Made by a program: the position numbers and the translations under genes. From the NCBI GenBank assembly GCA_014925825.1, contig JACGCK010000013.1:619044-683043 (forward strand): a stretch of 64,000 nt of DNA. Direction: 5' to 3'. Positions 25,044 through 56,601 of the stretch are shown here, piece after piece (within the stretch, counting starts at the first letter, position 1; each line of letters begins with the position of its first letter). This stretch comes from Pholiota molesta (Eukaryota; Basidiomycota; Agaricomycetes; Agaricales; Strophariaceae). A model generated the notes under the pieces. The model saw only the letters and a program-made list of their open reading frames with translations, was not told the DNA's origin and made no database searches.

Positions 25044-26439
25044 ATGAAACGTCGTCATCAATCTGTACAACCACAACGCTCCCTTATTCATATGGTGCAC
25101 AAAGTGGGTATCCAATTGGATAACGACTTCTGATTTCCCTCATCCAAATATCATTTACGCAGAAAATTGCAGAAATGTGGGTCTGGATAAGCTCCAGGGC
25201 TCCGAGTCGAGCCAAAGCGAACCCTTTCGAGTATGCACAAATGATGAATCTTACAGGAAAGATACTCAAAGATCGTGCAGTTGGAGGCGGAAGTATCACG
25301 GATGTGTTTATGGGATATTGGGCTTCTGATACGACATCAACAAAGGTAGGAGTCTAATTGAACCCCCAAGTACAATGAGCTGACAAGATTCTTTCAGGTT
25401 GCTATCAAGGTGCTTCGTTCGCATCTATACAAGCAAGAAGATCTCCCAAAGTTAGAAAAGGTACGCATTCTAGTCGCTCTCTAAATATACCGCCACTTAT
25501 TCACTTCTCAGACATTAAGGCGAGAGATAAGCATCTGGGGAAACCTCGACCACCCCAACATTGTACCACTGCTTGGAATCACATTTGATTTTGGTAGATG
25601 TCCTGCCATGGTTTACCGGTGGATGAGTCAGGGAACACTTTTTGAATACCTGAAGAGTAAAAAGGATCTAGACTTTGCAGGCCGATTGAGCATTGTAACA
25701 ATTCCTAACTCATTAGCATAACGAAGCTAACTAGATCTTATTCCAGTGTGTAGATATAGCCGATGGATTGGCATATCGTAAATTATTCCTTGAAGTTCTG
25801 TTTATACACTTGCGTCGTTGACTATGATTTCTTTATCCTCTAGTTCATTCGCAAAAGTTTATACATGGCAATTTGACACCGGTATGCCATTTAATCATTA
25901 GTATTTGTTTCTGTCTCATTACAGGGAGATAGGCCAGCGTCTTAATGGATAACGACGATCCCCATCTTAGCGACTTTGGGCTATCCAGCGCCATCGCGGA
26001 TTTTCAAATTCCCTCTTTTGTCACTTCCATGGGCGGAGAGTCGGTGAGATGGATCGCACCTGAGCTGTTGGAAGTCTCGGAGATCACCAAGCTTGAGCAC
26101 TCAACGTCGTGTGATGTTTACTCGTTCGCCGGGGTCGCGTTTTATGTCAGCTTCGAATGAATCCCCTCCGCTGCGATATATGAACTGATAATGTTTATTT
26201 AAAAAATAAAAAATAATTTATCCTAGGTCATCGCAGGGAGACTCCCATTCGAGGAGTTGGAACATGAATATCAAATAATTGCGGAAAGATTGCGAGGAAG
26301 AGAGGAATGTCTTTCAAGACCCGCGCAATCGCTATTGACGGATGAGTGCTGGGAAATCCTTACGATGTGTTGGCAAAAAGATCCTGCTCTACGACTAGAC
26401 ATCAACGACGTGAAGCTTGGTCTACGACGCTTTCTCTGA
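25044..26439 (+). CDS. TKL-family pseudokinase (HRD Asp replaced by Asn)
   Basis: Eight exons (25044-25103, 25163-25345, 25398-25460, 25512-25694, 25747-25777, 25844-25881, 25933-26145, 26227-26439) join in frame to 327 aa. A short N-terminus leads into SRAKANPFEYAQMMNLTGK, a linker shared with the three other kinases in the window. Visible kinase motifs: glycine loop GGGSITDVFMG, VAIK (Lys85), DHPNIVPLLG, DFG (LSDFGLSS, Asp200), WIAPELL and CDVYSFAGVAFYV. The catalytic loop reads HGNLTP where the paralogs read HGDLTP or HGDLSP; the Asn codon is at 25870-25872 (residue 183). ATP may still bind but phosphotransfer should be lost or very weak. No HeLo, NB-ARC or finger domain is attached. Direct repeats of about 130 bp flank the gene on both sides. 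Confidence 0.88.
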
Positions 26440-26513
26440 TAATATCGCCGTCATAGACAGTGTTTTCTCCCTTTATGTCAAAGCGAGCGACAAGCTAAAA
26501 CTCCCGAACTCTC

Positions 26514-26640
26514 GGTGGAAGAAAGAGAAGTCTTTCATGAACCAATGAAAGTGATATATCTATCAATTATCCAGGTCCAATGTATATTACAATTGTTAGT
26601 AGCATCAACGGTCATGAAATCAGGTCGAAGACAATGAGTG
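26514..26640. repeat. Direct repeat flanking the pseudokinase, right copy
   Basis: Partner of 24448-24584, overlapping the 3' end of the Atg22-like gene (stop complement 26620-26622). Confidence 0.75.
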
Positions 26641-28666
26641 ATACTCGTATTCTTGAGCATCCTTCCTTCCTCTGTCTACATCGACGCTCATGAGGATGGG
26701 ATGGCTAGCCAAATCATGAAGGTGAGGAAGAAGAATGCGTAGCGGATGTTCCCTGTCAGGTCGGAAATGATACCGACGACCAGGGGCCGATGAACGAGCT
26801 TGACTGTTATTGAAAAGCGACATCAGTACGGGGTCTGTCTGAGGTAAGGGGAGAATTGTGGAACAGACCTTGTCGGTGATGGAGAAAAGCCCGTACCAAC
26901 GGGCCTCTTCCCCTGGAGGCAGCAGCTCAGCGTAAAAGGCCCGTGCGTACCCCTGGAACGCTCCATACACAGAACCTGGATAGCGTTGAATCAATAACGT
27001 TCTTCACAACACTAGCCAATGCATAAATCAAAGTGCACGCACCGAAATACACCGCCAACGCAAACATCTCCCCTTGCGTCGTCAGACCGCCAAAACGCGC
27101 CCGTCCCTGGACGACGAAGCCGAGGCATCCATACAGCGGGATCATCGACGCGAGGATCACGAGGATCACGAGGACCTTGAGATTGGTCCACCCGAATTTG
27201 CGCTGGAGAACAGGCCAGAGGAGGGAGCCTGCGATCCCCGAGGTAGGCGTGAGGACGCCGATGAGGATGAGGGCTGAGGGTGACATGTGCAGTGTTGTTT
27301 TGCCGAAGAGGATGGCGGTTGATGTTATTGTTGTAAAGCCTAGAATATATTTGAGTACTAGGGTATGTATGGTGATTTAAGTTGGAATAATGTACCGTCA
27401 GAAAGGAGGAACCAAGCAGCGAGGTACTTGAACGTGTTTCTTAGTTTCTTGATCTCGCTCCAGCGAAGCATGTTTCCAAGTATGATCCAAGCTGCGATGA
27501 TCTCGCGTCTGGTACTCCAAGCCTTGTTATCGGTGTTTACTTCCGCGTTTCGACGGTCCGGGGCCAACGACACAGGGTGAGAACTGGGCAACCAGAGAGC
27601 AGCTGGTATAGTGAAGACGGCCCACCAGAGTCCGCTCAGACCAATGGCCAGACGCAGTGAGAAAGTAGACCCGTGAAGCTTTGTCACAGGGATCAACGCG
27701 ACTATGAGGAGGCAGATACCTGCTCCGTATCCTAGAGCGATTCCAAGAGAAGATATACGCGATGTGGAACGGGAGAGTTCTGCCTGGTACTCTGCCTCTA
27801 ATTCTTGCTTCTTGGCCACGTCAGCCGGAGCAGAGCTAGCAAGTAACGGCGCAGCTGGGTTTTCTGTGCTTATGTACGGATCACTGTCTACATCTGCCAT
27901 GGAAGTATCTTCTAAAGCCTGTAGTTGATCCAGTATTTTGACCACCTCCGGCGCTTCCCTGGCGAGGGAGGGAATGTACGCATTCATGGCGACGATAGAA
28001 GCGCCGAAACCGACATTGGAGAACATTGCAAGGAGAGCAGAGAGGTACCAGACTGGCGAACTTGAGGGTAGAATGAGAAAGAGGGTTGCTGCTATAGAGC
28101 CTAGGGCAGCGAAGCTGAGGAGCAATTTCTTACGATGAGGTGCTGTTGTTCCGTGAGTTAATCTGATATTGGAAGGTGCGATTAAAGACAAGACGCACGA
28201 TGGTCAGCAATGCCACCCATGGATATTACTGTGATAGCTTGGAGTGCAACAGATATTGAATATATATACAAACTAACGCCGTCTCGAGGTTACTAAATGA
28301 ACTCTTTTGAGAGACGAGAGTTTGGCACACCTGAAGCTTGCGCTATCTATCCATGCCCATCCAATCTTCACAACACATCTTGATTCATCTAGAGCAGTGC
28401 CATTCGTCGGTGCGCTCTGAAGCGCAGAACACGGCTCGGTTTTGTCTGGGAGGAGGTAACCGTTGTCTCTTGCGAATTGCTCCAAGCATATTGGCAGGAA
28501 GAGGGTCAGAGAAACAATAACAAAGACTTCACTACCAACGCCATACAGTCAGTAAGACGGTTTGTTGCTTGACTGAGAGCCATTGACAGAATAAGACTTG
28601 CCTCGCAAAGGCGTAGCTCAGCCATCCGTTCAGCTTCTTCTTGAACTGTCTGGTGCTGGACAGCAT
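26620..28666 (-). CDS. atg22: Atg22-like vacuolar amino-acid effluxer (C-terminus frame-broken)
   Basis: MFS-type multispan transporter of the Atg22 family, which exports amino acids from the vacuole after autophagic breakdown. Start ATG 28666 (MLSSTRQFKKKLNGWLSYAF), then ASEVFVIVSLTLFLPICLEQ and FARDNGYLLPDKTEPC, ALQAITVISMGGIADH, a long central exon (about 28150-27415) with GFGASIVAMNAYIP and a hydrophilic insert, LRNTFKYLAAWFLLSD, GWTNLKVLVILVILASMIPL and SVYGAFQGYARAFYAELLPP with LFSITDK. The first intron has a GC donor (gcgag|gcaagt). In the last exon the canonical splice gives SSSFIGP and then a stop at 26756-26758. The family's TGNIRYAFFFL and VDVDRGRKDAQEY blocks are present but in the other two frames, each transition explained by one missing base in a C run. 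Either a C-terminally truncated allele or two base-call errors. Confidence 0.82.
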
Positions 28667-28962
28667 GATAGAAGTGGAAAGAAGGAACTAGTTGAGAATC
28701 ATAGACAGCCACAGTGAACAAGCAGTACAAAAGCAGTAGTACTGTTCGAGTGATGGCGGTCGCGGACGCCTGCAACCGCAACCTGGCACGCGTGGGTGCG
28801 CGCGCACGCGCTGACTCACGCGCTGACTAATAATACGCAGGCGCGCATGTCACGTGCACAGTCATTGCCAAATCTAGAATCTTGAGCCACCTTGGTTAAC
28901 GTTCACTCAGCACCATCTTCTTCGAGAATTAACAGCAAATCATACGAGCCGTTATTCAAAAG
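28667..28962. promoter_or_regulatory. Divergent promoter, Atg22-like and TAF11
   Basis: 296 bp between divergently oriented starts. It contains a GC/purine-pyrimidine alternating stretch (28790-28815) and repeated 'cgcgctgact' (28807 and 28821). Shared regulation is inference. Confidence 0.35.
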
Positions 28963-30170: not shown

Positions 30171-30541
30171 TAGTTGATAATGCTCTTTCCCGTTCCCCCT
30201 GCTCTGTTTTTCTAGACTCTAGTTGTGCTTGTCTGTGTGTTTACATGACTGGTGCGAGACACTTGCTGTGTTATGATCGTCGATCTGATCTGATATGTGG
30301 TTTGAAAGCAGTGAAATATCTGGTCTTACAGGAACGCCATTTTTGGCGCTAGAAATGCTAAGATTGTATGACTTAGACAGGTATCATTTTTCTTCTTGTT
30401 TGTAGTAGCCAGATGTTGTTGATTTTTCTCAGGGACCCACATTTGCTAATAAAACAAAACACATGCAGGAGCTTTTAAGAATTACTTAATGTTGTTAAAC
30501 ATCATCAGACCGCTTCGCCTACCATCTTCTTTCAACCACCT
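30171..30541. other. Intergenic, TAF11 3' flank and APH promoter
   Basis: AT-rich, no coding or repeat signal seen. Confidence 0.45.
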
Positions 30542-31857
30542 ATGTTGCTTCCTTACTGGGACCGCTCAGGAGTCGTTCACCAGTTTGAGGCTTTTCCGCA
30601 ATCCGTTCATGACTGGGCTCAAGGTGAAGAAGTTCCTGCCAACCAGCAAGGACTGCACACTGCCGTCAAAGAGACCTTGGGTCAAGCTCTTATTCGCACC
30701 CGTTGCAAAGGCGTGGATATGAATATTGTACGTTCATCATCGATCTCGTTGATCATGTTTCTACGAAGAAGACTTACCAGAAGGGCAGACGCTGGATGCT
30801 ACCCTTGAGGATGGCAGATCGGTGATGCTACGCCAACGCAACACCTATGTTTCCGACCCCGTTCTTGAGAAGTGGAGTCTTGCCAGATTTCAGAATGAAC
30901 TTAAGCTCCTTCCTTGGCTCCGCGACAACACTAGCATCCCAGTTGCTAACCTTCTAGCGATCGGCCCCAATTATACGATCCAGGAAAAGATGCCAGGGGC
31001 CGACCTTACCTACCGCTGGCATTTCCTTTCTGAAGCCGCGAAGGTACATAAGTGCCAGTCTTTGGGAGAATGGTTCTGATTAATATTTTCTCGACGTCAG
31101 AACAATCTTATTTCTGGATATGTCAACATCTTATCGGATCTTTTCAATCTGTCAGTACCCCAGAAAATCGGATCGGCTTCCGTCGATGAAGTCGCGGGGA
31201 TGGGCGTAGGCCCTCTTCTCGCTTCCAATACTTCCTACTCTGCCCCCAAGGTCCTCGACGACATATCTGAGTACATTGACTTCCTTTTCACCGTAAAGCG
31301 CCAGCTGATCGCAGAGATGAAGCCTGAGGATCAGCAGCGCGCCGAGACGACTCTGTCGTCCCTCGAAACGAAGACCCGGACCATGATCCAGGCCATCCGC
31401 GATCCTGGCTTGTGCTTGCGCTGCGTGCTGACCCATGCTGACCTGCATGGCTACAACATCCTGGTGAACGATGATGGCGATATCACCGCTGTGCTGGACT
31501 GGGAGATCAACCGCATCCAGCCTGCGATCCTTGGGGTTGACTACCCAGTCTGGCTTTCTTCTAAAGGGATACATGATCCTCGATTTGCTAAGAATACTTG
31601 GTGGTGGGAGGAAAGCCCGGCTGAACGAGAGAGATTCTGCAATATCTTCGAAAAGGTACGAGAGTCGAGAGACTCTGACAACGACCTGGGGATTGAGTGA
31701 TTTTCTTTAGAAGATTCAAGAGCGTGATCCAGAAATGTATCAATGCTTGATAGAGGGTCGTGATTTGAGGGCTGTTGTTGGCTGGTTAACGGAAACTCGT
31801 TCAGACGATCCTGGTTTCGATCGCATGGGTTCATGGGCTACATCTCAGTTACAGTAA
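30542..31857 (+). CDS. APH/choline-kinase-like phosphotransferase (copy A)
   Basis: Aminoglycoside phosphotransferase-fold small-molecule kinase of the large fungal APH family; substrate unknown. Exon 1 from ATG 30542 (MLLPYWDRSGVVHQFEAFP) to about 30727-30731, exon 2 about 30775-31043, exon 3 31101-31655, exon 4 31711-31857. Key motifs lie in exon 3: the Brenner-like loop LTHADLHGYNILV (catalytic Asp and Asn) and GDITAVLDWE (metal-binding Asp), as expected for active APH enzymes. The N-lobe has SVMLRQRN and PVANLLAIGP. The exact exon 1/2 boundary is uncertain because two donors fit. Tail-to-tail with the HeLo-kinase gene on the other strand; the pair is duplicated at 36.7-41.3 kb. Confidence 0.82.
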
Positions 31858-32008
31858 ACTCGTCCTTTCTGAAACTGCAATTCCCTGGACCTGAAGCGCA
31901 CAATCAATTGACACAGTTTTCTGAACCGCACGAATACATATTTGGCAATACAGCTACATATTGAAATTTTTCATTTAGAAAAGTCCAAGTCAGAATCGCA
32001 GATAAAAA

Positions 32009-34277
32009 TCAAGATTCAAGGAAATCAAGTTGCTGCAGACGACGATTCACATCGTTAATGTCTGGACGTTTGGCAGGATCCGTTGCCCAACACATCGTAA
32101 GAAGTTCCCAGCAATCATCTTTTAATAGCGATTGCAGCGGCCTTGAAGGAGATTTATCGGTGCTTCTGTATATTTCTGCGATTATTGCATGGTCTTGTTT
32201 TAAGTGCGAATAAGGAAGCATTCCCGTGATGACCTGCGATAAAGAGTCGAGGTTACCCATAATTTTCAAATGAGATGGGTTAACTTACATAAAACGCGAC
32301 GCTAGCAAACGAGTACACATCGCATGATGTCGTGACGTCGGAGCCAAGCAATAGCTCAGGAGCAATCCATCTAGTTGAGCGCGAGACAGTTGAAGTGCAG
32401 AAAGAGGGTCCTTGGAGCTCTTCCATGACATTGGAGAGCCCGAAGTCGCTGAGGTGTGCAGTGCCGTTGTCCATCAAGATGTTGGCCTGGTATTCATCGT
32501 AAGACAGGGAAAATAAACGTCTGCGATGAGGTGACATACCGGTGATAAATCGCCGTGGATCACCTTTTGCGAATGAACTAGATAATAAAATTGTTTAGCA
32601 ATTTGAAAACACACGCAGTGTCAGGAAATGATTCACGGTATGATAGTCCACGTGCGATAGCGATGCACTAAAACTTGGTGGTCAGCTTCTTGCAATTCTA
32701 TTGCAGGTTTGAGAGTCGGTAGTTACAATATTCAATCGGTCATGAAGGCTTAAATTATCCTTTTCCCTCTCAAGGTATTCAGACAAGGTCCCTTGATTCA
32801 TCCACTGGCAAACCATCGCGATAGATTTGCCAAAGTCGGAAGTGACTCCAAAAAGTGATACGATATTGGGGTGGTCGAGGTTTCCCCAGATACGCATCTC
32901 TCTTTTTAGTCTCTACCGAACGAACGGGCATTAAGTGTGATACCGTAATTCGACACCGAAAAATTATAGTGGACCTTTTGCAGCTTTGACACATTTTCCT
33001 GACTGTATATCTGCGACCGGAGCTCCTTGATAGCAACCTAGTCGAATTTTATCAATTCACCGCACATGAAACTTTATTAGCGCATTGGCAATACCTTTAT
33101 TGATGTCGTATCAGTCACCCAATATCCCATGTGTACGTCTGCAAAACTTCCGCCACCGATTGTATATTCTTTGCGGACTTGTCCGCTGAGATTGTTCACC
33201 TGTGCGTAGGCGAAAGGGTTTCCCATGGCACGAGTCGGAGAGATAGGACGTATCAAGAATGAATCTTCTGTGGTCTTCTGTGAAGAATGCTTGAATTCGC
33301 GATAAATCCAATGTGATCCAGGTGGATACGAACCTCTTCCAGAGGTTTTGGAGGTAGGACATGATCCAGGTTATCAGTTAGTGGGCTAGATTTTTTTTAG
33401 TGGCGCAACTTCGAATAAAAAACATGAAAACTTACTGCGAAGCTGGATCCATGTTTTCGCCACTGACTGGCATGCCCCGCTGCAGTATCATGTCGAAAAC
33501 AATGTCCTTGTATCAAAGATATGAAAGGATCTGCATAGTTACTGTAAACTTGCTGACGTACCCTTAAGAGTCGTTTTTCCAACTCGTCCACGAGACGATC
33601 GAGTTTTTTCAGGTCTTCGGCGCCACGGCTTACAAACTTGACTAATTTCGGTCTAGCTTGGTGTTCCTCCAGTTTTCCCAAAACGTTGGTGAGCGTGCTT
33701 TGCTGGAATTTAGTTACAATTATGGCGATTTCAATTGGTCTTACTCACCTTGCGCAAACAATGAGCAAATTCTCCATTTGTGCCAAATTCTCCTTGGCCC
33801 CGTCGCCGGACTTCGCAATAGACGCTAGCTTCTCGTAGATCCAACGCGACAGGTTGAGTACTTTGTCTATAATTTTGATGCAACGCTTCTTATTCGTGTC
33901 GAGCTCCTGTGAAATTCGACGTCAAAGTATAGACAAGGAATGCCACCAGAGAAGTACGGACGTACATCTCTGATTTTGATGAGCTGTAGGATGACTCCCG
34001 TGAGCGTCTTCACGAATGGCGCATGCTGAAGGGCTTCTGCAACTTCTTCCACAATGACTGCAAGGGTATATGTCACTGAGTCAAGCGATTTATCGATGGT
34101 GTCGAACGCTTTATCGACGGTGTTACTGCCCGTTGGCGCTTGCCAGTGGGGAGCAGAATCGCCACTCGACTGAGAGGCATCGCTTCTGCCAGTAGGTGCT
34201 TGCATCGCAGCGTTGGTTGTCGGTCGTAATCGAGAGGGAAGTGAATGCCACGCAGCTGTATTTGTATTCCCACTCAT
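32009..34277 (-). CDS. HeLo/MLKL-like bundle - TKL kinase (copy A)
   Basis: About 550 aa in twelve exons, all with consistent GT-AG junctions. Residues about 50-225 form an amphipathic helical bundle (VEEVAEALQHAPFVKTLTGV, NLSRWIYEKLASIAK, DLKKLDRLVDELEKRLLR), resembling the N-terminal four-helix bundle of MLKL/HeLo-like cell-death domains common in agaricomycete NLR-type proteins. A short linker with LPPKPLEE (about 33360) leads into GNPFAYAQVNNLSGQ and a TKL kinase: GGGSFADVHMG, VAIKEL, DHPNIVSLFG, HGDLSP (catalytic Asp present), LSDFGLSN, WIAPELL, CDVYSF and a C-lobe ending at 32009. LPPKP is normally the lead-in to an NB-ARC domain; here the ATPase is absent. Likely an active kinase; membrane disruption by the bundle is inference from MLKL. 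Confidence 0.83.
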
Positions 34278-36233: not shown

Positions 36234-36697
36234 ATGGTCAACCCTCACATCCCGTCGTCAAACATAAGATTCTCTGCCCCCATATTCAAACGCTACAACT
36301 GCGACCGACCCATGTCCTCGCATGGCTGCACTCTTCACGGTTAAAGACGACGGTATTGGCGCCGTCAAGGCAATAGATGAGGCATACGTGCTTTACTTCG
36401 TCTATGTATGAAACCGAAAGAGCTTGCAACCCACGGCGATATTCGATTGCCTGAGCGCCTCTCGGCACGTTCTCTCATCCCGCCGGGCATCCGCTTCTCT
36501 CTAGAAGACGAAAGTAAGGGATTCGTATCTCTGAGATGTATACTCTCCGCTCGGTAGAAGGGGTCGTGCGAGTTCGATCTGTTGCGGTTGTTCGATGTCT
36601 GCAATTGCAAATTCATTGCCTTGAACCGCGGTTTGGGGAAGCGGCAGAATATCATCGTGAGCTGGAGCGTTGAAAGTGGCCGGTGGAACGCCGGACG
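36234..36697. repeat. Direct repeat R, left copy
   Basis: About 460 bp that recurs at 41431-41825: shared 'atggtcaaccctcaca', 'agattctctgcccccatatt', 'caaggcaatagatgaggcat' and 'gagctggagcgttgaaagtg'. It contains only short broken frames. It directly abuts the truncated APH copy B. Confidence 0.75.
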
Positions 36698-36701
36698 AGG
36701 A

Positions 36702-37792
36702 AGAAGACTTACCAAAAGGGCAGACGCTGGATGCTACGCTTGAGGATGGCAGATCGGTGATGCTCCGCCAACGCAACACCTATGTTTCCGACCCCGTTCT
36801 TGAGAAGTGGAGCCTTGGCAGATTTCAGAATGAACTCAGGCTCCTTCCTTGGCTCCGCGACAACACTAGCATCCCAGTGGCTAACCTTTTAGCGATCGGC
36901 CCCGACTATACGATCCAGGAGAAGCTGCCAGGGTCCGACCTTACCTACCGCTGGCATTTCCTGTCTGAAGCCGCAAAGGTCAGTGCCCATCGCTTGGAGA
37001 AAGCCTCTGTTAAATTTTTTATTTTTTCTTATGGATAATCTTATTTCTGGATATGTCAACATCTTATCGGATCTTTTCAATCTGTCGGTACCCCAGAAAA
37101 TCGGATCAGCTTCCGTCGACGAAGCGGCGGGGATGGGGGTGGGCCCTCTTCTCGCTTCTAATGCTTCCTGTTCTGCCCCCGATGTCCTCGACGACATATC
37201 CGAGTACATTGACTTTCTTTTCACCATAAAGCGCCATATGATCGCAGATGAAGCCTGAGGATAAGCAGCGCGCCGAGACCACTTTGGCTTCCCTCGAAAC
37301 GAAGATCCGCTCCATGATTCAGGCCATCCGCGATCCTGGCTTGTGCTTGCGCTGTGTGCTGACTCATGCTGACCTCCATGGCTACAACCATCCTGGTGAA
37401 CGACGATGGCGATATCACCGCTGTGCTGGACTGGGAGATTAACCGCATCCAGCCTGCGTCACCCTGCGATCCTTGGGGTTGACTACCCAGTCTGGCTTTC
37501 TTCTCAAGGGATACATGATCCTCGATTTGCTAGGGATAATTGGTGGTGGGAAGAAAGCCCGGCTGAACGAGAGAGGTTCTGCAGAATCTTCGAAGAGGTA
37601 CGAGATTCGATAGACTTCAATAACAATTGCTGATTGAGTAATTTTCTCCAGAAGATTCAAGAGCGTGATCCAGAATTATATAAATGCTTGATAGAGGGAC
37701 ATGATTTGAGGGCTGTTGTTGGCTGGTTAAGGGAACCTAATTCAGACCCTGGTTTCGATCGCATGGGTTCATGGGCTACATCTCAGTTATAG
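36702..37792 (+). pseudogene. APH-like phosphotransferase pseudogene (copy B)
   Basis: High identity to 30770-31857 but lacks exon 1; homology begins at the EDLP-GQTLDATL block and directly abuts repeat R. Relative to copy A the acceptor of intron 2 is lost (about 37030, no cag before 'aatcttatttctgg'), two bases are deleted near 37249 (frame closes at once), one base is inserted near 37388 inside the catalytic-loop codons (HGYN), and a 10-bp partial duplication ('ctgcgtcacc') lies near 37457. The remainder, including the C-terminal exon, is still close to copy A, so the inactivation is recent. Confidence 0.88.
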
Positions 37793-37930
37793 TAAACTTG
37801 TCATTTCTGAAATTGCAGATCCTTGGACCTGAAGCGCGCATTCACTAGGCACAGTTTCCTGAACTGCATGAATACATATTGGGCAATACAGCTACATAGG
37901 TCTGAAATTTTTCATCTAGAGAAGTGTAAG

Positions 37931-40900
37931 TCAGAATCGCACATCAAATCCAAAATCAAAGGAATCAAGTTGCTGCAGACGACGATTCACATCGTTAATG
38001 TCTGGACGTTTGGCAGGATCCGTTGCCCAACACATCGTAAGAAGTTCCCAGCAATCATCTTTTAATAGCGATTGCAGCGGCCTTGAAGGAGATTTATCGG
38101 TGCTTCTGTATATTTCTGCGATTATTGCATGGTCTTGTTTTAAGTGCGAATAAGGAAGCATTCCCGTGATGACCTGCGATAAAGAGTCGAGGTTACCCAT
38201 AATTTTCAAATGAGATGGGTTAACTTACATAAAACGCGACGCTAGCAAACGAGTACACATCGCATGATGTCGTGACGTCGGAGCCAAGCAATAGCTCAGG
38301 AGCAATCCATCTAGTTGAGCGCGAGACAGTTGAAGTGCAGAAAGAGGGTCCTTGGAGCTCTTCCATGACATTGGAGAGCCCGAAGTCGCTAAGGTGTGCA
38401 GTGCCGTTGTCCATCAAGATGTTGGCCTGGCATTCATCGTAAGACAGGGAAATTAAATGTCTGCGATGAGGTGACATACTGGTGATAAATCGCCATGGAT
38501 CACCTTTTGCGAATGAACTAGATAATAAAATGTTTAGCAATATGAAAACACACGCAGTGTCAAGAAATGATTCACGGTATGTTAGTCCACGTGCGATAGC
38601 GATGCACTAAAAACTTGGTGGTCAGCTTCTTGCAATTCTATTGCAGGTTTATGTAAGAGTCGGTAGTTACAATATTCAATCGGTCATGAAGGCTGAAATT
38701 CTCCTTTTCCTTCTCAAGGTATTCAGACAAGGTCCCTTGATTCATCCACTGGCAAACCATCGCGATAGATTTGCCAAAGTCGGAAGTGACTCCAAGAAGT
38801 GGTACGATATTGGGGTGGTCGAGATTTCCCCAGATACGCATCTCTCTTTTTAGTCTCTATCGAATGAATGGCCATTAGTTATAATGCATCAAACTACGCC
38901 AAAAAATAGTATACCTTTTGCAGCTTTGACACATCCGCCTGACCGTATATATGCGAACGAAGCTCCTTGATAGCAACCTAGAAGAATTCTATTAATTCAC
39001 CACACATGAAATATTGATGCATTGGCAATACTTACCTTTATTGATGTCGTATCAGTCACCCAAAATCCCATGTGTACGTCTGCAAAACTTCCGCCACCGA
39101 TTGTATATTCTTTGCGGACTTGTCCGCTAAGATTGTTCAGCCGTGCGTAGGCGAAAGGGTTTCCCTTGGCATGATTTAGAGAGATAGGACATATCAAGAA
39201 TGAATCTTCTGTGGTCTTCTGTGAGGAATGTTGAAAACCCAATGTGATCTAGTGATCCAGGTGGATACGAACCTCTTTCATCGCGTGCTCATTTGCGTGT
39301 GTTATCAGTGAGCGCTCTTCTCCCACTGGCACAATGCTCGCCCTAGAAGACAAAGGGCTGGGATTCGCCTCTCTGGGCTGTGTTCTGTCAACCCGGGGCA
39401 ATGACATTTGGTCGTACGAGCTATGATAAGGAGAGATTTCATTTTTGCTCATGGGTACAAACTCCGGACTCGAATCTCTAAAATGTGTGTTGCAAATGTC
39501 AAACACCGATAATGGTTCATACCCGTCAGACACATCCTTGTCCATGCGAAGGCTGTAGACAGAGAGAGCGATTGATCGATCCAGGTTGGATTGGTGATCG
39601 TCACCACCGGTATGAATAACTTCAGTGTAATCTGCCGACCAACGTCCCCACAAGGACTCGGAGCTTTCGCCATCACGGAGGAGCGTCGAGACAAGTGTAA
39701 CCGCTAACGGGATTCCATCAATGGCTTGTAGAAGTTGAACAGTAAATTCGTCGATGATATGGTCGCTAGCAATGTTACGGAGTACATCCTTTGCACCGTC
39801 CAGAGATAGCGTCACGAGAGGAGGGAGGAGAGGTCTGGACCACATGACTTTCGAAGGATGGTGCTCACCACGTAAGGTTATGATGAGCGATAAATTTGGG
39901 ATGTCGGCGAAGAATTCCAGTAGTTCTTCCACTTTTGTGGTGCGCGTATCGAATGCTTCCCAGGGAGTTTCGAAATTGTCGAAGCATGCAAGGGCGGTCG
40001 ACGTCCCCAGCAGGCGCCGTGCTGACGCTAGTATGACAGACGGAGCCACGTTGAGTCCGAGCATGGATCCGAATTTCAGCAGCAAAGTATCGATGTCGAG
40101 CATACCCTCACAGGATAGGAAGTATTGTGACTGGTAGCGCTCGACAATTTTCGGGTCGTGGAGGATTGTGAGGGCCAACGTAGTCTTCCCGAACCCGCCG
40201 CCACCTATGATTGCAATTCGAGAGGTTTCTGGCCTCAGAAGAATATCGAGCGCGTGCTTCAAATGGTCTTCGCGCTCAATCATTAGGTGAGGTTTTGGAG
40301 GTAGGACATGAACCAGGTTATCAGTTGGTGGGCTGGATTTATTTTAGTAACGCAACTTCGACTAAAAGACATGAAAACTTACTGCAAAGTTGGATCCATA
40401 TTTTTGCCACTGACTGGCATGCCCTGCTGCAATTTCATGTCGAAAACAATGTCCTTGTATTGAAGAAATTTATGAAAGGCTCTGCATGGTTACTGTAATC
40501 TTGCTGACGTACCCTTAAGAGTCGTTTTTCCAAGTCGTCCACAGCACGATCGAGTATGTTCAAGTCCTCGACGCCACGGCCGAGAAATGTGTTAAATCTC
40601 GATCTAGCGTGGATTTTCTCCAGTTCTCCCAAAATGGCGGTGAGCGTGCTGTGCCGGAATTTAGACTTATAATTATCGCGACATAAATCGGTCTTACTCA
40701 CTTTGCGCCAGAAATGAGCGAATTCTCCACTTCTGCCAAATCCCCCTTGGCCCGCTCGCCGGACTTCGCAATGGCCGCTAGCTTGTCGTAGATCCAACGC
40801 GACAGTCTGAGTACCTTGTCTATAATTTCACGGCAACGCTCCTTATTCGTTTTGAGCCCTGTGAAATTCGATGTCATTGTATAGACAAGGAATGCCACCA

Positions 40901-41163
40901 GAGAATTACGGACGTACATCCCTAATTTTGACAAAACGTAGGATGACTCCCGTGAGCGTCTTCACGAATGGCGCATGGGTATTCGTCAAGTCAAGCGCTG
41001 ACGCTTGGGGAGCAGGATCACCACTCGACTGAGAGGCGTCGGTTCTGCCAGTAGGTGCTTCCATGCAGCGTTGGTTGTCGGTCGTAATATAATCGAGAGG
41101 AAGGAAGTGAATGCCCACGCACAAGCAGCTGTATTTGTATTCCCACTCATCTGCCGCGTGCAT
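37931..41163 (-). CDS. HeLo-like bundle - NB-ARC - TKL kinase fusion (copy B)
   Basis: Duplicate of the 32009-34277 gene that carries an extra NB-ARC-type ATPase module. Start 41163 or, in frame, 41064; the MSGN start used in copy A is out of frame here, and about 35 residues of the first helix are missing. Helices follow (LRLSRWIYDKLAAIAK, LNILDRAVDDLEKRLLR). One long exon (about 40330-39273) reads HVLPPKPHLMIEREDHLKHA, P-loop GGGGFGKTTLA, Walker B-like LACFDNFETPWEAF, sensor-like LIITLRGEHHPSKV, GIPLAVTLV and GDDHQSNLDRSIALSVYSL. It then splices at NEHAMKE to the same exon as copy A (KTTEDSFLICPISLNHAKGN). The kinase is complete: GGGSFADVHMG, VAIKEL, HGDLSP, LSDFGLSN, WIAPELL. No TPR or WD repeats follow the ATPase. 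Confidence 0.82.
39273..40330 (-). other. NB-ARC module in the linker of kinase copy B
   Basis: Single open exon of about 350 codons. It lies exactly between LPPKP and the exon-end Glu codon (gag|gttcg) that are adjacent in copy A (LPPKP-LEE). The canonical LPPKP lead-in favours loss from copy A rather than gain in copy B. Confidence 0.75.
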
Positions 41164-41825: not shown

Positions 41826-42593
41826 CGTCCAGACTCTAGGAGGAGGATGAACCCCGATCTGGCGTGTATGCAAATTTACTATTCGAACGAAGCGCGGCGA
41901 CGGCTTCCGGCCGCGTGTAATTGGCGCTGGTTCGAACAGTGGGCTCGATAGTGATAATCCATGAAGATCGTTCAACATTGACGATTGAAAAGTTGATGCG
42001 GGCGCCGCTGGAGGGGACGCCTGAGAAGCCAAGAGACGGATAACCTTCATAATTCGTCGAGAGACCTGATGAAGACGATGGATTGTCATTAACATCTGTT
42101 AGCGAAGGGGTAGAGCTGGAACTCTTATGCAACTACTGGGACGAGGAGCCAGGTGGCGGAGGCAAGTTGTGACCTGGGGCAGAATTTAAAAAAGGAAAAG
42201 GATAAGTGCAAGTTGCAGAGCCTGGCGCGACTCATGTTGAATAAAGGGTCGACCTTCGGTCTCCTCAACACCTTGCTGATGGCGTCACATTATTTGAACG
42301 TCCTCGATGCAGACTTATGTTTAGGACAGGTTCATCAAATTATTTTCTTTTGATATACTTTAACTTACTTATACTTAATTAATGGCCCGGGTTATTATCA
42401 CTTGTATGTGATTTATTGATGAGAAGCCTTGGAGAAGCCTGTAAATTGTAATCATTGCTATTTGATTGCTATAATCTTTTATTGTCAGACCTCGCTGGCG
42501 GCTGCACCCGCCACGCTCGGTCTTCGGAAACTGTAAAAGAATTAAAGTACCAAGTGTCATTTCTTCAACATTTCTTGGTCATTTCTCAACATT
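41826..42593. other. Intergenic, no recognised gene
   Basis: A 98-codon minus-strand frame (41836-42132) begins with a Ser-rich stretch and has no recognised domain. The rest is AT-rich. Confidence 0.35.
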
Positions 42594-42811
42594 TTCAAAC
42601 ATTTCGCAAGTCGATAGGCATTTTCAAACATTTCGCAAGTCGATAGGGAATGCATTGTTTGCTTGTGCTTGGCAATCCATGCTCAGGTAAATATTTACGA
42701 TTTCTCAACATTTTCACAAGTCGATAGGGAATGCATTGTTTGCTTGTGCTTGCCAAACCATGTTCAAGTAAATATTTACGATTTCTCAACATTTTCACAA
42801 GTTGATAGGGA

Positions 42812-45800
42812 TAGTGTTGTCCTCGAAGTGAGGTGAGACGAGGCGGAGCAACAACTCGAACCAACTCGATTTCGACGAGTTGATTCGAGGTGTACCTCGC
42901 GAGGCAAGCGAGGTTTCGGCGAGGTCGGTCGTTGCCGACAGATTTTCTCAGTCCAATGAGGTGACAGCGCTAGCCGAATTAAATATACTGGGAAGAGCTC
43001 TAGATTACATGTAGATTACCGCGCTGTAGAGTAGATTACAACTAATTCTAATGGTTTATGGTGTAAATATGGAATTATAAGGATTCAGTTGAATTCTTTA
43101 TCAACTGGCTAAGCTCTTCGAACTTCCCCGCTGCCATCAGCTCATCTACGGCGAATTCTGTGAGTGGCCCAGAAATCACATAATCCGCTTCTTTTGCAAC
43201 TTCTTCCACAAAGCAGAGACGTTCGGATCGATACGAGAATTTCAATACTTGAAGGGCTTCAAGAAGCCCACGAGATAAACGGTTTCGGCGGAGGGCACAG
43301 GTTTCTTTGCTGGATGAAAAGACGCGTTCACATGGCACTGAAGATGCTTGAGCAGGAAGCACGTCCATTGCCACTCGAAATAAGAAAGGATATTCGTATT
43401 CATATGTCTGTAAAATATATGAGTAACTTTGTTGCAAAGAATAAAGCAAAACATATGACTGACCGACCAAAACTCGTCGATATTAATCATACCCGAATTT
43501 TCGAAAGAGGTGATGATACCGGCTGCCTCATACCTGCTCAATTCTCGCTCCACATGTGCTTTATCTTCTGCGAGTTCTCGCATTTTTCTAGTGGCAATCT
43601 CTTCTGCTGTCTCTTGATGAGGTTGAATAGGTAGGGGAGTTTGACTTCGTGATGAGCTGGTGCTGGGACTGGATTGAGTGGGAGTTTGAACGTTGATCAA
43701 CGATGACGAGCGCCTAATTCCGACATTGAGGGATTGCAGCCGACTGTACCCATGTGCAATGTTGGTCGACGCAAGCTCGGAAGGAGACGATTTCCGTGAA
43801 GCTGCCGTGGGTTGTGAATGGGAAGAAATCGGCTGATTAGTGCATTGGTGTTGCTTAAAACTCAACATCTGAAAAACTACAATCAACGACGCAAACTGGA
43901 TTCGAAGAATACAAGGACTCACTGCTTCAAGTATCCAGTTCCGTGCATTGAGTTCGTCCTGCCCACTCTTATCATTCTCTGCAAACCAGGTAAATTTTTG
44001 TCCAGGATTCAAAACTAGTAGAGATGTCAAGTTTCAACATGATTTGAGAAATGCCGGAAATCCAAGGAAGATAACGTACTCATTGCAAGTGAATATAGAC
44101 ATGTCTTTCTTGCCCTTCCTGCATATTCCTCAAGCTTTGATACTCCAAGGTCGATAAAATGTTTGAGTTCTGGTATGGTTGTTGCGAGTGCCTTCCATTT
44201 GAAGATCAAAGTCTTGAAGACAGGAAAGGCCATCGAAAGGGTAGGTGTACGCTCGGCAGAGAGCAATTCTTGAGCGAGATGGGCTACTTGCAATACCTGA
44301 TGAATATCCTGTAGGACAACTTTCTGTAGGGGACTTAAAAGCAATGTTTCTGCGATATCCGATTGATCTAAGTCAAGGAGAAAGTCACAGATTGCCTATT
44401 AAATAAATATTTGAACAAGAAAAGAGATGTGAATTATGTGGAAACTCACAACATATAATTCGAGAACTCGATCTATCATGTTGAACGTTGAGGACCATCG
44501 TGTTTCGCAGTCGCGGAGAAGCTGAACCAGTCGGATGTAGTCCTTTCCGTCATCTAGCTTTCCCTTCCAATAACCTGACCTATTACCTTCATCGATCTTC
44601 TTCAATAAAGCCTGCCGGTGTTGTCCTGAGGCTCGGCAGGTAGATACAATGCTTCGACATTTTCCTACTAGATCAGATTCAAGTGCGTTGAGATAGTTTC
44701 CCCACTCCTCGAGTTCTTTCGCGGTTGGCGGATCACTCATGGGAGGTTCTTTGATGTCCGAGAGGAAGCCTTGTTTGAGTTCAGCAAGGATGGTTTGGCA
44801 GGCAATATTGACAATATGCGGAAAGCAACTTGAATACGAGTTAGAATCTTAATTTTTTGACACAATGGTTCAATAACTCACCGAATTCTATTCCCATCTT
44901 GATCAAAAGGTATGTTTCTTGCCGCTAGCTCGCGCGCCAGCTCCTTCATCATTGTATTATTGTTGGAAGCATTGTCCATTGTGATCGCCCCAATCTAAAT
45001 GCTCTAAATTAACCTCTAACTCAATCAGAAACATTCACCAAACTTACCTTCCCAAGGATATTTAACTCTTCGAGGATCTTGATAAAATTTTGTGCGAGAT
45101 TAATGCCAGTGTGGCTACCTTCGACAAAGCGGAATGCAATGAGCCCGTTATGCCTTTTGAGCTGCCGATGTTCATTGCGAACATAATAATGCGCGCTGAT
45201 GGCCATGTAGGAATCGAGACTTGGATCACTCCATAAGTCAGTTGTAAAAGATATCCGTCCTTCCGCACGTTCTAACTCATCCTTAGTCATTGCGATCTGT
45301 TTCTTGTACGCGTCAAGAATTGAATCCGTCATCTTATGACAATGAGGAATGTCTTTATCTTCGAGTTTTCCGGCGCCTAAGTAGAGCATAAGATCGCGGA
45401 ATTCATTACATTCAAGAACATAGATAGACTAGAATAAAAAACCATTAGCTTGATAATATAAAACAAAGATTGATCCTAAATACCTGATCATCGATAACAA
45501 GCCACCTTCAAAGAAGTTCAAGGAACTTCTCTGACGAGAATGGTTGATCATTTGAAAAAAATCCAGATCGAGAATTCGTTGAGGAACTCTTGAGTCCCTT
45601 TATTTTAACTGCTGCTTCATATGTGTTGCCGTGATATTTCTTGAGATGTGTACGGTAACACTCTGTCATCCCATCAGAAAGTTTCCAAGCCTTCCATGTC
45701 CTATTTCATTTCAGTAAGTATATACAGAATAGGATAGGGAAAAATGTCTCACATGCATAGTTTACAGCCGACATATGGAGTTGAGGGCTTACATTCAAGG

Positions 45801-47032
45801 ATGGGTTCATCCTTTGGTTTGACCACTGGCTCTTCTGCCGTTTCGAGAGCATGCAAAAAATACCAAACGTCCGTTGCAGCGGCTGGATGATCTTGATAAC
45901 GGCGCAAAGGTGGCGCTTTCGATGTAGATTGTTGCGTCGAGATGGTAGGTGGCATAGATGGTGCTACTGGTATTTTTTAAAGGTAAGGCAATGTCACAGC
46001 TGAAAGTAAATTCAAACATACCAGGATGATTAGGGTCATGATTTTCAACATCTCCCCGGTGGGATTGAGCATTGCTCGTTGGACCAACACCACAGCTAGC
46101 CGAAGGTGTGCTCGATTCCAATGTCGCACTAGCTGTTTGCCTCGGGCGCTTATTACTAGCGCCAGTCCGACTACCTGCCGGTGCTCGCTTTCTTTTGCCC
46201 CGCGTTGATTCGACATTGGTCGCGATGCCATTCTGGTTAAGTACAGTTGGAACAGAGGGTGGCTGATTCATTGGAGGAAGTGATGGATGGCTAGAGTAGT
46301 ATGGATGGGTGTGGTGAGACGTATAATCAGAGTTAAAGCCACCATGATTGTTGAAAGGGTGAGGTTCAAGCTGAGACGGGTACATCAAATGAGAAGGTGG
46401 ATGCATCTGAGGGTGGTACATTGCTCCGTGGTAAGAACGCATCCGTAAAGGAGGCTCGTTAACCTGTTGTGGCAGCCGTGCAGGATGCGAGGCTTCAGAT
46501 GTTGATGGAAAGGCTGGCTGAGGAGAAGTTTGAGATAAAGCAGGAGTATGAAAGCCAGGATGAGGGGAATCAGGTCGCTCAAGCAGCGCATATTTGGCTT
46601 CCCAGTCCATAGTCAAGGCTTATGTTCACTTTCGAGTAGATAGAGGCTGGTAATTCTTTTGGAAACACGACTGAAGAGAGTATTTTATACCTTTTCCAAG
46701 AGCCTTATTGCAAAATCCATCGTACGACAAAAGAATTTAGACTTTGAAACAAGATAAATTTTATTCAGGGACTAATATATACTGGTTACGTAGGTTACGT
46801 TCCTCCAAATTGGAAGAGAGGGAGGAGGAAGAGGAGACGCGATCCTTTAACGCTCAGAGACGCGTTGAGATGCGCGCGCAGGAAGCCCCACGTGCTTAAT
46901 TTGATGTACCTCGTGTGACTTCGACGAGGTGAACTCGAACTAACTCGACGTCGACGAGTTGATCCGAAGTGCCCTGATTTTGAGCTGAGGCGAGGTGTAC
47001 CTCGAAATCACCTCACTCCGGGGACAACACTA
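42812..47032 (-). mobile_element. hAT DNA transposon with 8-bp target-site duplication
   Basis: 4221-bp element. Termini are inverted: TAGTGTTGTCC at 42812 and GGACAACACTA ending 47032, the similarity extending into 'gaagtgaggtg' / 'cacctcactcc'. The target duplication GATAGGGA is perfect (42804-42811 and 47033-47040). Subterminal palindromes of the form AACTCG...CGAGTT occur near both ends (about 42855-42875 and 46935-46960), possible transposase sites. It encodes a hAT transposase on the minus strand. Confidence 0.95.
43075..46616 (-). pseudogene. hAT transposase (one in-frame TGA)
   Basis: Spliced transposase filling the element. The N-terminus is Pro/His/Ser-rich (46616 to about 46030). 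A BED-type zinc finger spans two exons (VGCKLCM and TWKAWKLSDGMTECYRTHLK, ending KYH). The DDE catalytic residues sit in SFTTDLWSD (about 45240), AITMDNASNN (about 44980) and SSVPCERVFSSS (about 43320). The C-terminal hAT dimerisation block runs to RNRLSRGLLEALQVLKF and the stop is at 43075. Exon phases fit throughout, but the exon ending near 45488 has a TGA (complement 45508-45510) between FLELL and RWLVIDDQ. Unless read through or miscalled, full-length transposase is not made and mobility would depend on another copy. Confidence 0.85.
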
Positions 47033-47105
47033 GATAGGGAATGCATTGTTTGCTTATGCTTGCCAATCCACGCACAGGTAAATATTTACGATTTCTTAAC
47101 ATCTA

Positions 47106-47534
47106 TCCATATATAGTGAATTTCGACAGTGGGGGACCATTGCTTTCAGCAAGGTGACGTTGAACCTTGTAGTGTGAAAAAATCAACCCTGCCGAAGCCT
47201 GACCTAAGTCGGGTTTCGCCCGTTTTCGCCGAGCAATCAACGTCTCAGACGATGAGTCTATGCCTCGGCGATTGCTCAAGCCTCTGGAAGCGCCCGCTTT
47301 CAGGCTACGATACTGATAACACTGGCAATGGACCGGGAGAAGGTGATGAGGACTCCAAGGAGATGGATAGAGACCAACAATCGTCGGATGATGTTGGTGG
47401 TCATGCTCAACCAGCTCTCGATGATTTTGGACCATATCAGATTCATTTATCACTGGCACTCAGTACTCAGCAGTCAAGCTAGTCAAGACTGATACTAACT
47501 TCTGAATAGAGATATATCTAGGGTCAAACAAGGA
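47106..47534. other. Intergenic, possible small ORF
   Basis: An open plus-strand frame 47129-47482 (117 codons, acidic C-terminal half) has no recognised domain; not called as a gene. Confidence 0.3.
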
Positions 47535-49470
47535 TCAAGCAAACTCGAGCTGTTGTAGAGACTGTACTACATCATTGATATCTGGACGTTTCGTCGAATC
47601 TGTTGCCCAACACATTGCAAGGAGTTTCCAGCACTCATTTGTCAATAGTGATTGCGCCTGGGGTATTGGGGATTTGCCATCGGTTTTGTACATTTCCAAG
47701 ATGATTGCGGCGTCAGTTTTCTGCCGTTCATATGGGAGTATCCCCGTAATAATCTGCCATTAAATCATCAGCTCTTAGATTTCAGGCGCGATGGGCCTTT
47801 TGCAGACTCACATAACATGCAATGTTTGCAAATGAGTATACGTCGCACGACATGGTGAGTTCAGGCGTGGCATCGTTCGCGACCAGCAGTAACTCGGGCG
47901 CAATCCATCTCGTCGAACCTCCGACCTTGGAAGTCAAGAAAGACGGCCCTTGGAGTTCAGCGATGACATTGGGGAGCCCGAAGTCACTAAGATGTGCAGT
48001 GTCGTCATCCATTAGAATATTGGCCTATGATTCCAGGAGGATTGAAAGAGGTAGGCATGGGGAAGAAGCACATGCTAATAATGGACGGACATACCGGCGT
48101 CAAATCCCCATGGATAACCTTCTGCGAATGAACTAGAGAGTAAATACAAAAATGGTCAGCTAGATTATCGTGTCAAAAGGACTGCGGAGAATAACTCACG
48201 ATATGAGAGCCCATGTGCGATAGCTATGCACTGAAAACAATATTTTAGTCAGCTTCACGTATTTTTCAAGCGAGGATATCAACGTTACAATGTTCAATCG
48301 ACCTTGGAGGCTTAAATTGTCTTTTTCCTTCCCGAGATAATCAGCAAGAGTTCCTTGACTCATCCACCGGCAGACCATGGCAGTAAATTTGCCAAAGTCG
48401 GATGTGACCCCAAGGAATGGTACAATATTGGGATGTTTGAGATTTCCCCAGATACGCATCTCTCTTCTTAGCCTCTGCCAAATAGATGAAGGTTGGTAAG
48501 TGTACTCATGATTTGAAGAGAGTAAGTACCTGTTCCAGCTTCAGAATACTTGATGATTCATATATTTGCGAACGAAGCTCTTTGATAGCAACCTAGAAGG
48601 AGAACCCTGTCAACCAGCCACACATGAGACCTTACTGAAGTAGTACCTTTGTCGATGCAGTATCAGTTACCCAATACCCCATATGGACATCTGCAAAACT
48701 TCCGCCTCCAATCGAATGTTCAAGTTGTTGGATTTTTCCACTGAGGTCCTTCAGTTCTGCGTACGCGAAAGGGTTTGCTTTGGCACGGCTCGGAGACCTA
48801 GGAGCTATCAAAAGCTTATCTACGATCTTTTGCGGAAGTCATCAATGAATTAGCGATACCAAAAGTGATTAAATCAGATACTCACTTTTTGCACCAGTTG
48901 ACCGATCGAACGTTGTGGCTCTGCCAATGTTGAGGATGTTTCAACACTTCTGATTCCGGGGCCAGAAATTCTCAAGCTCAACAGAGACATAACGCCGCCG
49001 CGCCGCGCGGGATCTGGTTTTGTTGGCCGAGAATCATGAAAAGATACCTTTGAGGCGTTTCGAGACTTTGAGAAAATCAATGAGCTTTTCGAGGATAGAC
49101 TTTGCACATGATCTCGAAGATGATGGTCCAATGCTGCGCCATGTTGGAAGTATAAATCACATCCTATGTGCGTTCCTTAGTCCTTAGCGCGCTGGTATTT
49201 TGGTTTTTTAATGCGGCTTACCTGGCTGCGTGCAGGTGAAATACTTCTCTTTAGTGTGTTCCGACTGGATGTGGGACACAAGTGCATTATACGAAGGAAA
49301 AGCGTAACCTCTTTTGGAGCACGATGCCCATTCACAGATGTTTGTGTGTTCAGGCCCATCGATATAACCTGCGATAAGAATAATAGTCTTTAGGACAAGG
49401 CGAATGCTAGCGGAATCTGTTACCAACCTTGTCGGCTATGATGGGGAAGGGTTCGATTTGTAGATGGCAT
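47535..49470 (-). CDS. C2H2 zinc-finger - TKL kinase fusion
   Basis: Start ATG 49470, stop 47535-47537, about 480 aa. A first small exon (MPSTNRTLPHHSRQ) splices to a C2H2 finger: CEWASC-x12-H-x4-H (about 49350-49280), followed across an intron by a second, CTQPGCDLYFQHGAALDHHL with RDH (about 49235 and 49160-49125). A Ser/Arg-rich stretch and the linker PRSPSRAKANPFAYAELKDL lead to the kinase: GGGSFADVHMG, VAIKEL, KHPNIVPFLG, HGDLTP (catalytic Asp present), LSDFGLPN, WIAPELL, CDVYSF, then CWATDSTKRPDINDV near the end. Junctions are in frame. Closest relatives in the window are the pseudokinase at 25 kb (same SRAKANPF linker) and the two HeLo-kinases. No HeLo or NB-ARC domain. The finger pair could bind nucleic acid or protein; its role is unknown. 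Confidence 0.82.
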
Positions 49471-56600: not shown

Positions 56601-56601
56601 T

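What the first reader, a model, noticed from the sequence alone, without database searches (positions are those of the whole stretch)
25044..49470. Four TKL kinases with swapped N-terminal modules: a candidate fungal MLKL/NLR-like system
Seen: four related kinase domains within 25 kb share the pre-kinase linker (NPF-x-YA-x(4)-L-[S/T]-G) and intron positions, but carry four N-termini: almost none (25 kb, pseudokinase), an amphipathic helical bundle (32 kb), bundle plus NB-ARC (38 kb), and two C2H2 fingers (47 kb). Known: helical bundle plus kinase-like domain is the layout of animal and plant MLKL; HeLo-like bundle plus NB-ARC is common in fungal NLRs controlling heterokaryon incompatibility and cell death. 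Inference: one kinase is being recombined with receptor and executioner modules, and the locus may encode a sensor-kinase-executioner set in which the catalytically dead paralog regulates the active ones.
Basis: partly seen in the sequence, partly recalled or inferred. Interest (0 to 1): 0.93.

Follow-up and report, generated by a model that had tools for sequence, protein, structure and literature searches.

The report
Mushroom MLKL-like kinase fusion cluster
In the mushroom Pholiota molesta, one predicted gene joins a four-helix bundle related to the killer part of the cell-death protein MLKL to an intact-looking kinase, next to copies with other front ends and a copy predicted to be catalytically dead; it likely acts as a death switch in self/non-self defence, and would be an MLKL design that this fungus likely rebuilt from its own immune-receptor genes.

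Summary
Four paralogous kinase genes (A 25 kb, B 32 kb, C 38 kb, D 47 kb) in Pholiota molesta share a linker, six kinase introns and a phase-0 intron just before the kinase. B's N-terminus is an MLKL-type four-helix bundle: a profile of 13 agaric bundles finds MLKL as the first six hits in the PDB (best E 9.1e-5; next unrelated 0.035). The bundle comes from NB-ARC-TPR receptors. B is thus MLKL-like in layout, but its kinase motifs are complete, as in Pm13 of a wheat relative. C carries NB-ARC but is damaged (helix lost, exon-2 frame, NB-ARC cut after ARC1). A is a predicted pseudokinase (HGN). Elsewhere the same kinase carries C2H2-like or EH domains. Homologous contig C27 lacks A and C; B' has a stop, D' two insertions. 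Since the B/C split, B's kinase changed least. Against fusion: the deposited model of C uses an acceptor 10 nt downstream and ends before the kinase; no RNA evidence was available. That some fungal HELL domains sit in kinase/pseudokinase proteins is already in print (PMC12881547). Verdict: new variant of a known kind; the sensor-kinase-executioner set remains inference.

The parts
25044..26439 (+). Gene A: kinase with almost no N-terminus (327 aa, 8 predicted exons: 25044-25103, 25163-25345, 25398-25460, 25512-25694, 25747-25777, 25844-25881, 25933-26145, 26227-26439); predicted pseudokinase (HGN, ASVLM)
24499..26640 (.). 86-nt direct repeats (24499-24584 and 26555-26640, 84% identical) flanking gene A; the interval between them is missing from the homologous contig C27
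32009..34205 (-). Gene B: bundle + kinase, 526 aa, 12 predicted exons (34205-33966, 33906-33749, 33697-33562, 33506-33436, 33385-33334, 33277-33095, 33037-32975, 32912-32727, 32667-32637, 32577-32540, 32486-32289, 32233-32009)
33334..34205 (-). B exons 1-5: MLKL_N-type four-helix bundle and LPPKP linker (residues 1-219)
33278..33333 (-). B intron 5 (56 nt) joining bundle to kinase in phase 0; a second AG acceptor 10 nt downstream would end the protein at KIHS*
32009..33277 (-). B exons 6-12: linker and kinase domain with complete motifs (GGGSF, VAIK, HGD, SDFG, APE)
37931..41064 (-). Gene C: damaged bundle + truncated NB-ARC + 92 residues of unknown origin + kinase, 831 aa in the model used here
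39273..40332 (-). C exon 5: LPPKP linker, NB-ARC (GGGGFGKTTLA) up to ARC1, unique tail ending HAMKE
47535..49470 (-). Gene D: two C2H2-like fingers + kinase, 465 aa, 10 predicted exons
30753..31700 (+). APH-type phosphotransferase ORF pieces convergent with B; part of the unit duplicated with C
36661..37529 (+). Second copy of the APH-type gene, convergent with C

Best explanation
Gene B is predicted to encode an MLKL-like fusion protein in which a four-helix bundle, likely taken from a bundle-NB-ARC-TPR immune receptor, is spliced to a kinase with complete catalytic motifs, and it likely works as a kinase-gated membrane-attack switch in non-self recognition or defence. Shown: the bundle family is related to MLKL_N by profile; its closest relatives are NLR N-termini of the same genome; B's kinase motifs are complete; predicted exons of both parts join in frame through a 56-nt GT-AG intron; the homologous contig C27 has the same layout. 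Inferred: an NLR 5' half landed upstream of a kinase gene (C keeps this state, with part of the NB-ARC), and B then lost the NB-ARC by an exact deletion. Inferred and untested: at rest the kinase domain holds the bundle; a trigger that changes its phosphorylation or oligomeric state frees the bundle, which permeabilises the plasma membrane. A, with a changed catalytic site and no front end, would act as a regulator or decoy for the active kinases; D and the EH copies would send the same kinase to other partners.
For: Bundle: profile A4 (13 sequences: B and 12 bundles trimmed from Pholiota and Hypholoma proteins) hits MLKL as the first six PDB rows, E 9.1e-5 to 0.0094, next unrelated 0.035; profile A2 (15 sequences) puts five MLKL rows first, E 0.0015-0.0045; 9 of 15 members match Pfam MLKL_N at E<=1, best 2.6e-4; hhalign against three Mycena NLR bundles, two of which match MLKL_N (best 7.6e-8), gives probability 91, E 1.1e-6. 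A model of the relative P0003 best resembles plant CC-NLR resistosomes. NLR origin: P0122-P0137, the 16 hits after P0121 and all from Pholiota, list TPR in 16 of 16 and NB-ARC in 13 of 16. Fusion: in-frame phase-0 intron in B, C and B'; C's exon 6 has no in-frame ATG before the kinase domain; the frame SFLI-x-P...NPFAYAQ recurs in the EH copies. Constraint: with B' as reference, B's kinase has 1 non-synonymous and 3 synonymous own changes in 284 codons, C has 11 and 5; distant paralog pairs give dN/dS 0.13-0.27. Defence-like evolution: A and C absent, D' interrupted, B' with a stop on C27.
Against: No transcript evidence. The deposited model of C (P0121) splices 10 nt further on and stops before the kinase; the same second acceptor exists in B and B'. 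B, unlike C and B', has an in-frame ATG just before NPF, so a stand-alone kinase start is possible there. B alone has no Pfam MLKL_N match, and Syntaxin matches 8 of the 15 bundle members with a slightly better best E (1.2e-4) than MLKL_N. Bundle dN/dS is near 1 for B-B' (0.101/0.113) and B-C (0.195/0.201); the kinase gives 0.96 for B-B' and 0.46 for B-C: relaxed or diversifying. B' carries a stop codon and D' two insertions, so the cluster tolerates loss. The search with B's bundle (proteins of about 289-920 aa) found only P0003, an NB-ARC protein: no second bundle+kinase protein. Counts on B's own branch are small. Complete kinase motifs differ from animal MLKL, so the gating step is by analogy only.
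Confidence: 0.42

Rival explanations
1. B and C are by-products of ectopic recombination in an NLR-rich, transposon-rich region: chimeric pseudogenes without function.
For: C lost a helix and its exon-2 frame; B' has a stop and D' two insertions; bundle dN/dS about 0.9-1; C and A missing from C27; a transposase-like gene (by eye) lies between C and D.
Against: All 12 predicted exons of B are open, with GT-AG at each predicted intron; B's kinase shows 1 non-synonymous to 3 synonymous own changes; the bundle+kinase layout is kept at both B and B' with 98-99% identity around the junction.
Confidence: 0.28
2. The bundle and the kinase are separate genes: the receptor fragment ends at KIHS* and the kinase is read alone.
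For: Deposited model P0121 of C ends exactly there; both acceptors are CACAG; B has an ATG just before NPF.
Against: In C the kinase exon offers no in-frame ATG before the domain, and B' has GTG there; the upstream acceptor keeps an open frame in B, B' and C that is similar in the EH copies. The upstream acceptor is the first of the two from the intron side.
Confidence: 0.15
3. The proteins are fungal counterparts of plant kinase-fusion proteins: the kinase is the signalling part and the variable N-terminus (bundle, NB-ARC, C2H2, EH) is a bait or adaptor, not an executioner.
For: One kinase clade carries four kinds of N-terminus; HGD is kept in 9 of 10 copies and all motifs listed in 8 of 10; the authors of Pm13 raise the same question for its MLKL_NTD (passages seen).
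Against: The bundle is of the class that acts as executioner in MLKL and HET-S (passages and one section), and B keeps the whole bundle.
Confidence: 0.15

Closest known systems
Pm13 of Aegilops longissima (MLKL_NTD + kinase; PMC10951266, passages seen)
   Same: N-terminal MLKL_NTD bundle, C-terminal kinase with all key residues, 476 residues, presented as a kinase fusion protein
   Different: Plant; its kinase is of the LRR_8B subfamily; resistance role shown by mutants. Here the host is a mushroom, the kinase is nearest to TK/TKL kinases among solved structures, and nothing is tested
Animal and Arabidopsis MLKL
   Same: Four-helix bundle followed by a kinase-like domain; the bundle profile matches animal MLKL
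   Different: Those are pseudokinases (PMC10951266 passages); B keeps VAIK, HGD and DFG
BaMLKL NLRs of Basidiomycota (PMC9815663, passages seen)
   Same: N-terminal MLKL_NTD-like bundle with an extra N-terminal helix at the head of an NLR
   Different: NLR relatives here keep the rest of the NB-ARC and TPR; C stops after ARC1 and continues into a kinase; B has no NB-ARC
Fungal HELL-kinase/pseudokinase proteins mentioned in PMC12881547 (passages and section 18 seen)
   Same: Bundle joined to kinase or pseudokinase domain in a fungus, noted there as reminiscent of MLKL
   Different: No species or sequence was seen in the passages read, so identity with this case cannot be judged
FslK kinases of Agaricomycetes (PMC3937382, abstract and first part of Results seen)
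   Same: Mushroom-expanded kinases related to tyrosine kinases; B's best solved matches are tyrosine kinases
   Different: Membership is by phylogeny and was not tested; there only 16 of 241 members have extra domains

Membership tests
MLKL-type protein | N-terminal four-helix bundle homologous to MLKL_N | tested here: met
   at family level; B alone gives no Pfam MLKL_N match
MLKL-type protein | C-terminal kinase-like domain in the same polypeptide | tested here: inconclusive
   in-frame exons in B, B' and C; deposited model of C disagrees; no RNA
Animal MLKL | pseudokinase (catalytic residues lost) | tested here: not met
   B has VAIK, HGD, SDFG, APE; A, which has no bundle, has HGN
Animal MLKL | brace helices between bundle and kinase | not tested
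   the spliced B protein was not folded: the structure tool takes no spliced proteins
MLKL-type protein | membrane permeabilisation and cell death | not testable with these tools
   needs expression
BaMLKL NLR | bundle + complete NB-ARC + C-terminal repeats | tested here: not met
   C stops after ARC1 and has no TPR; B has no NB-ARC
FslK kinases | falls in the FslK clade of a kinase phylogeny | not tested
   no FslK reference set at hand; nearest solved kinases are TK and TKL
Kinase fusion protein | kinase joined to an unrelated extra domain | tested here: inconclusive
   predicted for bundle, C2H2-like and EH copies, without transcripts
C2H2 zinc finger (gene D) | match above Pfam cut-off | tested here: inconclusive
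   zf-C2H2_15 E 0.025, zf-C2H2 E 0.4, both below cut-off; spacing fits by eye
EH domain (C607 copy) | match above Pfam cut-off | tested here: met
   PF12763 E 7.5e-9, 35.9 bits over cut-off 22; exons lie just upstream of the kinase, gene boundary not verified

The most novel reading that the evidence does not exclude
A mushroom has independently rebuilt MLKL by cutting an executioner bundle out of its own NLRs and putting it under an active kinase, and two splice acceptors 10 nt apart (CACAG|AAGACCACAG|AAG) decide in B, B' and C between a free killer bundle (223 residues in B) and a kinase-tethered one, with a dead-kinase paralog, present in only one nuclear haplotype, tuning the response in a haplotype-specific self/non-self system.
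Probability: 0.12. Interest if true: 0.9.

Novelty: new variant of a known kind. Interest (0 to 1): 0.6.

Why it matters
Bundle-plus-kinase proteins are known as cell-death or resistance proteins in animals and plants. A mushroom case in which donor family (bundle-NB-ARC-TPR NLRs), a candidate intermediate (C, with part of the NB-ARC left) and product (B) still sit in one genome would let the origin of this design be read and tested. It would also give basidiomycete self/non-self recognition, whose models all rest on ascomycete work (start of the abstract of PMC8229728, listing), a concrete candidate.

Tried and rejected
Rejected: C's 92-residue tail as the kinase gene's ancestral N-terminus. 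Shuffle tests gave no support against D (1405 of 2000 shuffles reach the score), A (502) or EH (354), and 81 of 2000 against C489, best of four tests; the stretch has no second match in the genome (very common words are skipped there). Rejected: continuous shuffling of N-termini; the kinase tree follows the N-terminal type, though the D+C12/C489 fork is only 87/88. A search for other bundle+kinase proteins found none, but with a short word list and a length window, so it is weak evidence. HeLo is not among the first 25 of 69 Pfam families listed for the 15 bundle members. The fold search of P0003 is dominated by NB-ARC, whole-chain rmsd to the top resistosomes is large (13-21 A in most top rows), so the bundle was not tested alone by structure, and MLKL does not appear in the rows shown there. 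dN/dS between B and B' mixes real change with B' decay and possible conversion; the three-way assignment cannot tell B' changes from changes shared by B and C. In print: seven searches of the open library listed no paper that I recognised as describing this locus (listings only, except the papers named), but PMC12881547 already mentions fungal HELL domains in kinase/pseudokinase proteins.
Full report
Source. The window is contig C35:619044-683043 of a 65.6-Mb, 625-contig assembly. Proteins deposited for Pholiota molesta lie on contigs of 683,043 and 286,913 bases, the lengths of C35 and C489, and P0121 is 99% identical to gene C over 57% of it, so the organism is Pholiota molesta. Many loci occur twice; the assembly looks like an unmerged dikaryon (inference). 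Contig C27 matches the window at 94.5-96% over its three longest blocks and at 95% over 22.2-24.2 kb, and is treated as the other haplotype.

Gene models. I read the models from GT-AG sites and homology, without transcripts. A (25044-26439, +) gives 327 aa, B (34205-32009, -) 526 aa, C (41064-37931, -) 831 aa, D (49470-47535, -) 465 aa. Pfam finds the kinase in all four, NB-ARC in C (E 7.1e-7), and only sub-threshold C2H2 hits in D. The kinase was refitted at 10 loci: 9 of 10 have six introns. A, B, C, D, B', C12 and C489 share a further phase-0 intron directly before the linker. In the C607 fit there is no such intron; the C265 and C547 fits are unclear there.

Is the join real? In B, B' and C the donor GAG|GTTCGT and the acceptor CACAG|AAGACC (54-56 nt) give an open frame into the kinase. 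A second acceptor 10 nt on gives KIHS*, and the deposited model of C uses it and ends there (P0121); that model also starts inside C's first intron. For the fusion: C's exon 6 has no in-frame ATG before the domain, B' has GTG where B has ATG, and the linker frame (SFLI-x-P...NPFAYAQ) recurs in the EH copies. Against: B does have an ATG just before NPF. I hold fusion more likely, unproven.

The bundle. After P0121, the next 16 hits to C (P0122-P0126 from P. molesta with P0127-P0137 from P. conissans) list TPR in 16 of 16 and PF00931 in 13 of 16. Of the 40 proteins aligned in A1, 14 bundles were trimmed and joined with B in A2 (15); A4 (13) leaves out P0154 (Peniophora) and P0146 (P. conissans). 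hmmsearch of the PDB puts MLKL first with both: A2 five MLKL rows at E 0.0015-0.0045, then two unrelated chains (0.015, 0.027) before a sixth MLKL row at 0.066; A4 six MLKL rows at 9.1e-5 to 0.0094, next 0.035. Pfam MLKL_N matches 9 of 15 members (best 2.6e-4), not B itself; Syntaxin matches 8 of 15 (best 1.2e-4), which shows how weakly single helical sequences separate. hhalign with three Mycena NLR bundles gives probability 91. The AlphaFold model of P0003 (mean pLDDT 77; blocks of residues 31-180 at 52-76) best matches plant CC-NLR resistosomes, mainly through the NB-ARC, with large whole-chain rmsd. In the genome, 80 exon-level matches to B's N-terminus fall into 32 loci when grouped within 1.2 kb; 3 of 32 (B, C, B') coincide with kinase loci. 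Such counts are lower bounds.

The kinase family. Twelve loci of this genome carry close copies (A, B, C, D, B', two D' copies, C12, C489, C607, C265, C547). Of the 10 whose kinase was fitted, 9 keep HGD and A has HGN; C547 lacks the APE stretch. N-termini: bundle (B, B'), bundle+NB-ARC (C), C2H2-like (D, C12, C489), EH (C607, PF12763 E 7.5e-9; similar frames at C265 and C547), almost none (A). The tree groups them by N-terminus. A search for B's bundle in proteins of about 289-920 aa gave only P0003. Among the first search's hits the nearest annotated kinases of other species, P0002 and P0005 of P. conissans, have almost no N-terminus.

History of B and C. B and C are tandem copies that include the APH-type neighbour. 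They differ by one exact indel, CCAAAACCTC^TGAAAGAG (B' version of the join), which holds the NB-ARC and the unique tail in C. Because LPPKP-HLMIERE...NB-ARC is the NLR order (compare P0122), I infer that C shows the older fusion and B a deletion; the reverse is not excluded by the junction alone. B' on C27 has B's layout and 98-99% identity around the junction, while its exon 1 diverges.

Polymorphism. C27 lacks A, between 86-nt direct repeats, and lacks the C unit and the element between C and D. D' has two insertions on both C27 and C94; B' has one stop codon and about 1.4 kb of extra sequence about 50 bp upstream of exon 1. In 284 kinase codons, own changes (synonymous, non-synonymous) are B 3, 1; C 5, 11; B' 2, 18 including the stop; one site was ambiguous. 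Pairwise dN/dS: distant pairs 0.13-0.27; close pairs B-C 0.46, B-B' 0.96, C-B' 0.93, C265-C547 0.73, C607-C547 0.15, C12-C489 0.12, C607-C265 0.08; bundle B-B' 0.90 over 182 codons and B-C 0.97 over 185. So, of B and C, B is the conserved copy and C the decaying one; numbers are small, and B' changes may include changes shared by B and C.

Mechanism. Bundle class and layout suggest an MLKL-like or Pm13-like role: kinase state gates the bundle. The steps 'kinase holds bundle', 'trigger frees it', 'membrane attack' and 'A regulates' are inference. Presence/absence and broken alleles fit genes of non-self recognition but also plain decay.

Known or new. Pm13 of a wheat relative is MLKL_NTD + complete kinase (passages). 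BaMLKL in NLRs is known (PMC9815663, passages). A 2025 review states in a legend that some HELL domains are in proteins with kinase/pseudokinase domains (PMC12881547, passages). New here: donor family, candidate intermediate and product in one genome, a kinase module with four kinds of N-terminus, and haplotype differences.

Noticed in passing
window 30753-31700 and 36661-37529: Two copies of an APH-type phosphotransferase gene, convergent with B and C and duplicated with them.
   Followed up: partly
window 43075-45428: Transposase-like ORFs between C and D (hAT-like by eye, not tested); the interval 42242-47158 is absent from contig C27.
   Followed up: partly
window 53341-60490: Long + strand ORFs with a strong purine skew that read like a retroelement polyprotein by eye; no test run.
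   Followed up: no
window 22200-24200: Gene region with a 67% identical paralog at C35:625885-627701 (window about 6842-8658) and a 95% match on C27; used as synteny anchor.
   Followed up: partly
G000 C607:186796-187056 and upstream: EH-domain exons directly upstream of the same kinase; an EH-kinase would be an odd endocytic-adaptor-like fusion. Similar frames at C265 and C547.
   Followed up: partly
window 33268-33278 and the same site in C and B': Two AG acceptors 10 nt apart, one fusing to the kinase, one ending the protein.
   Followed up: partly
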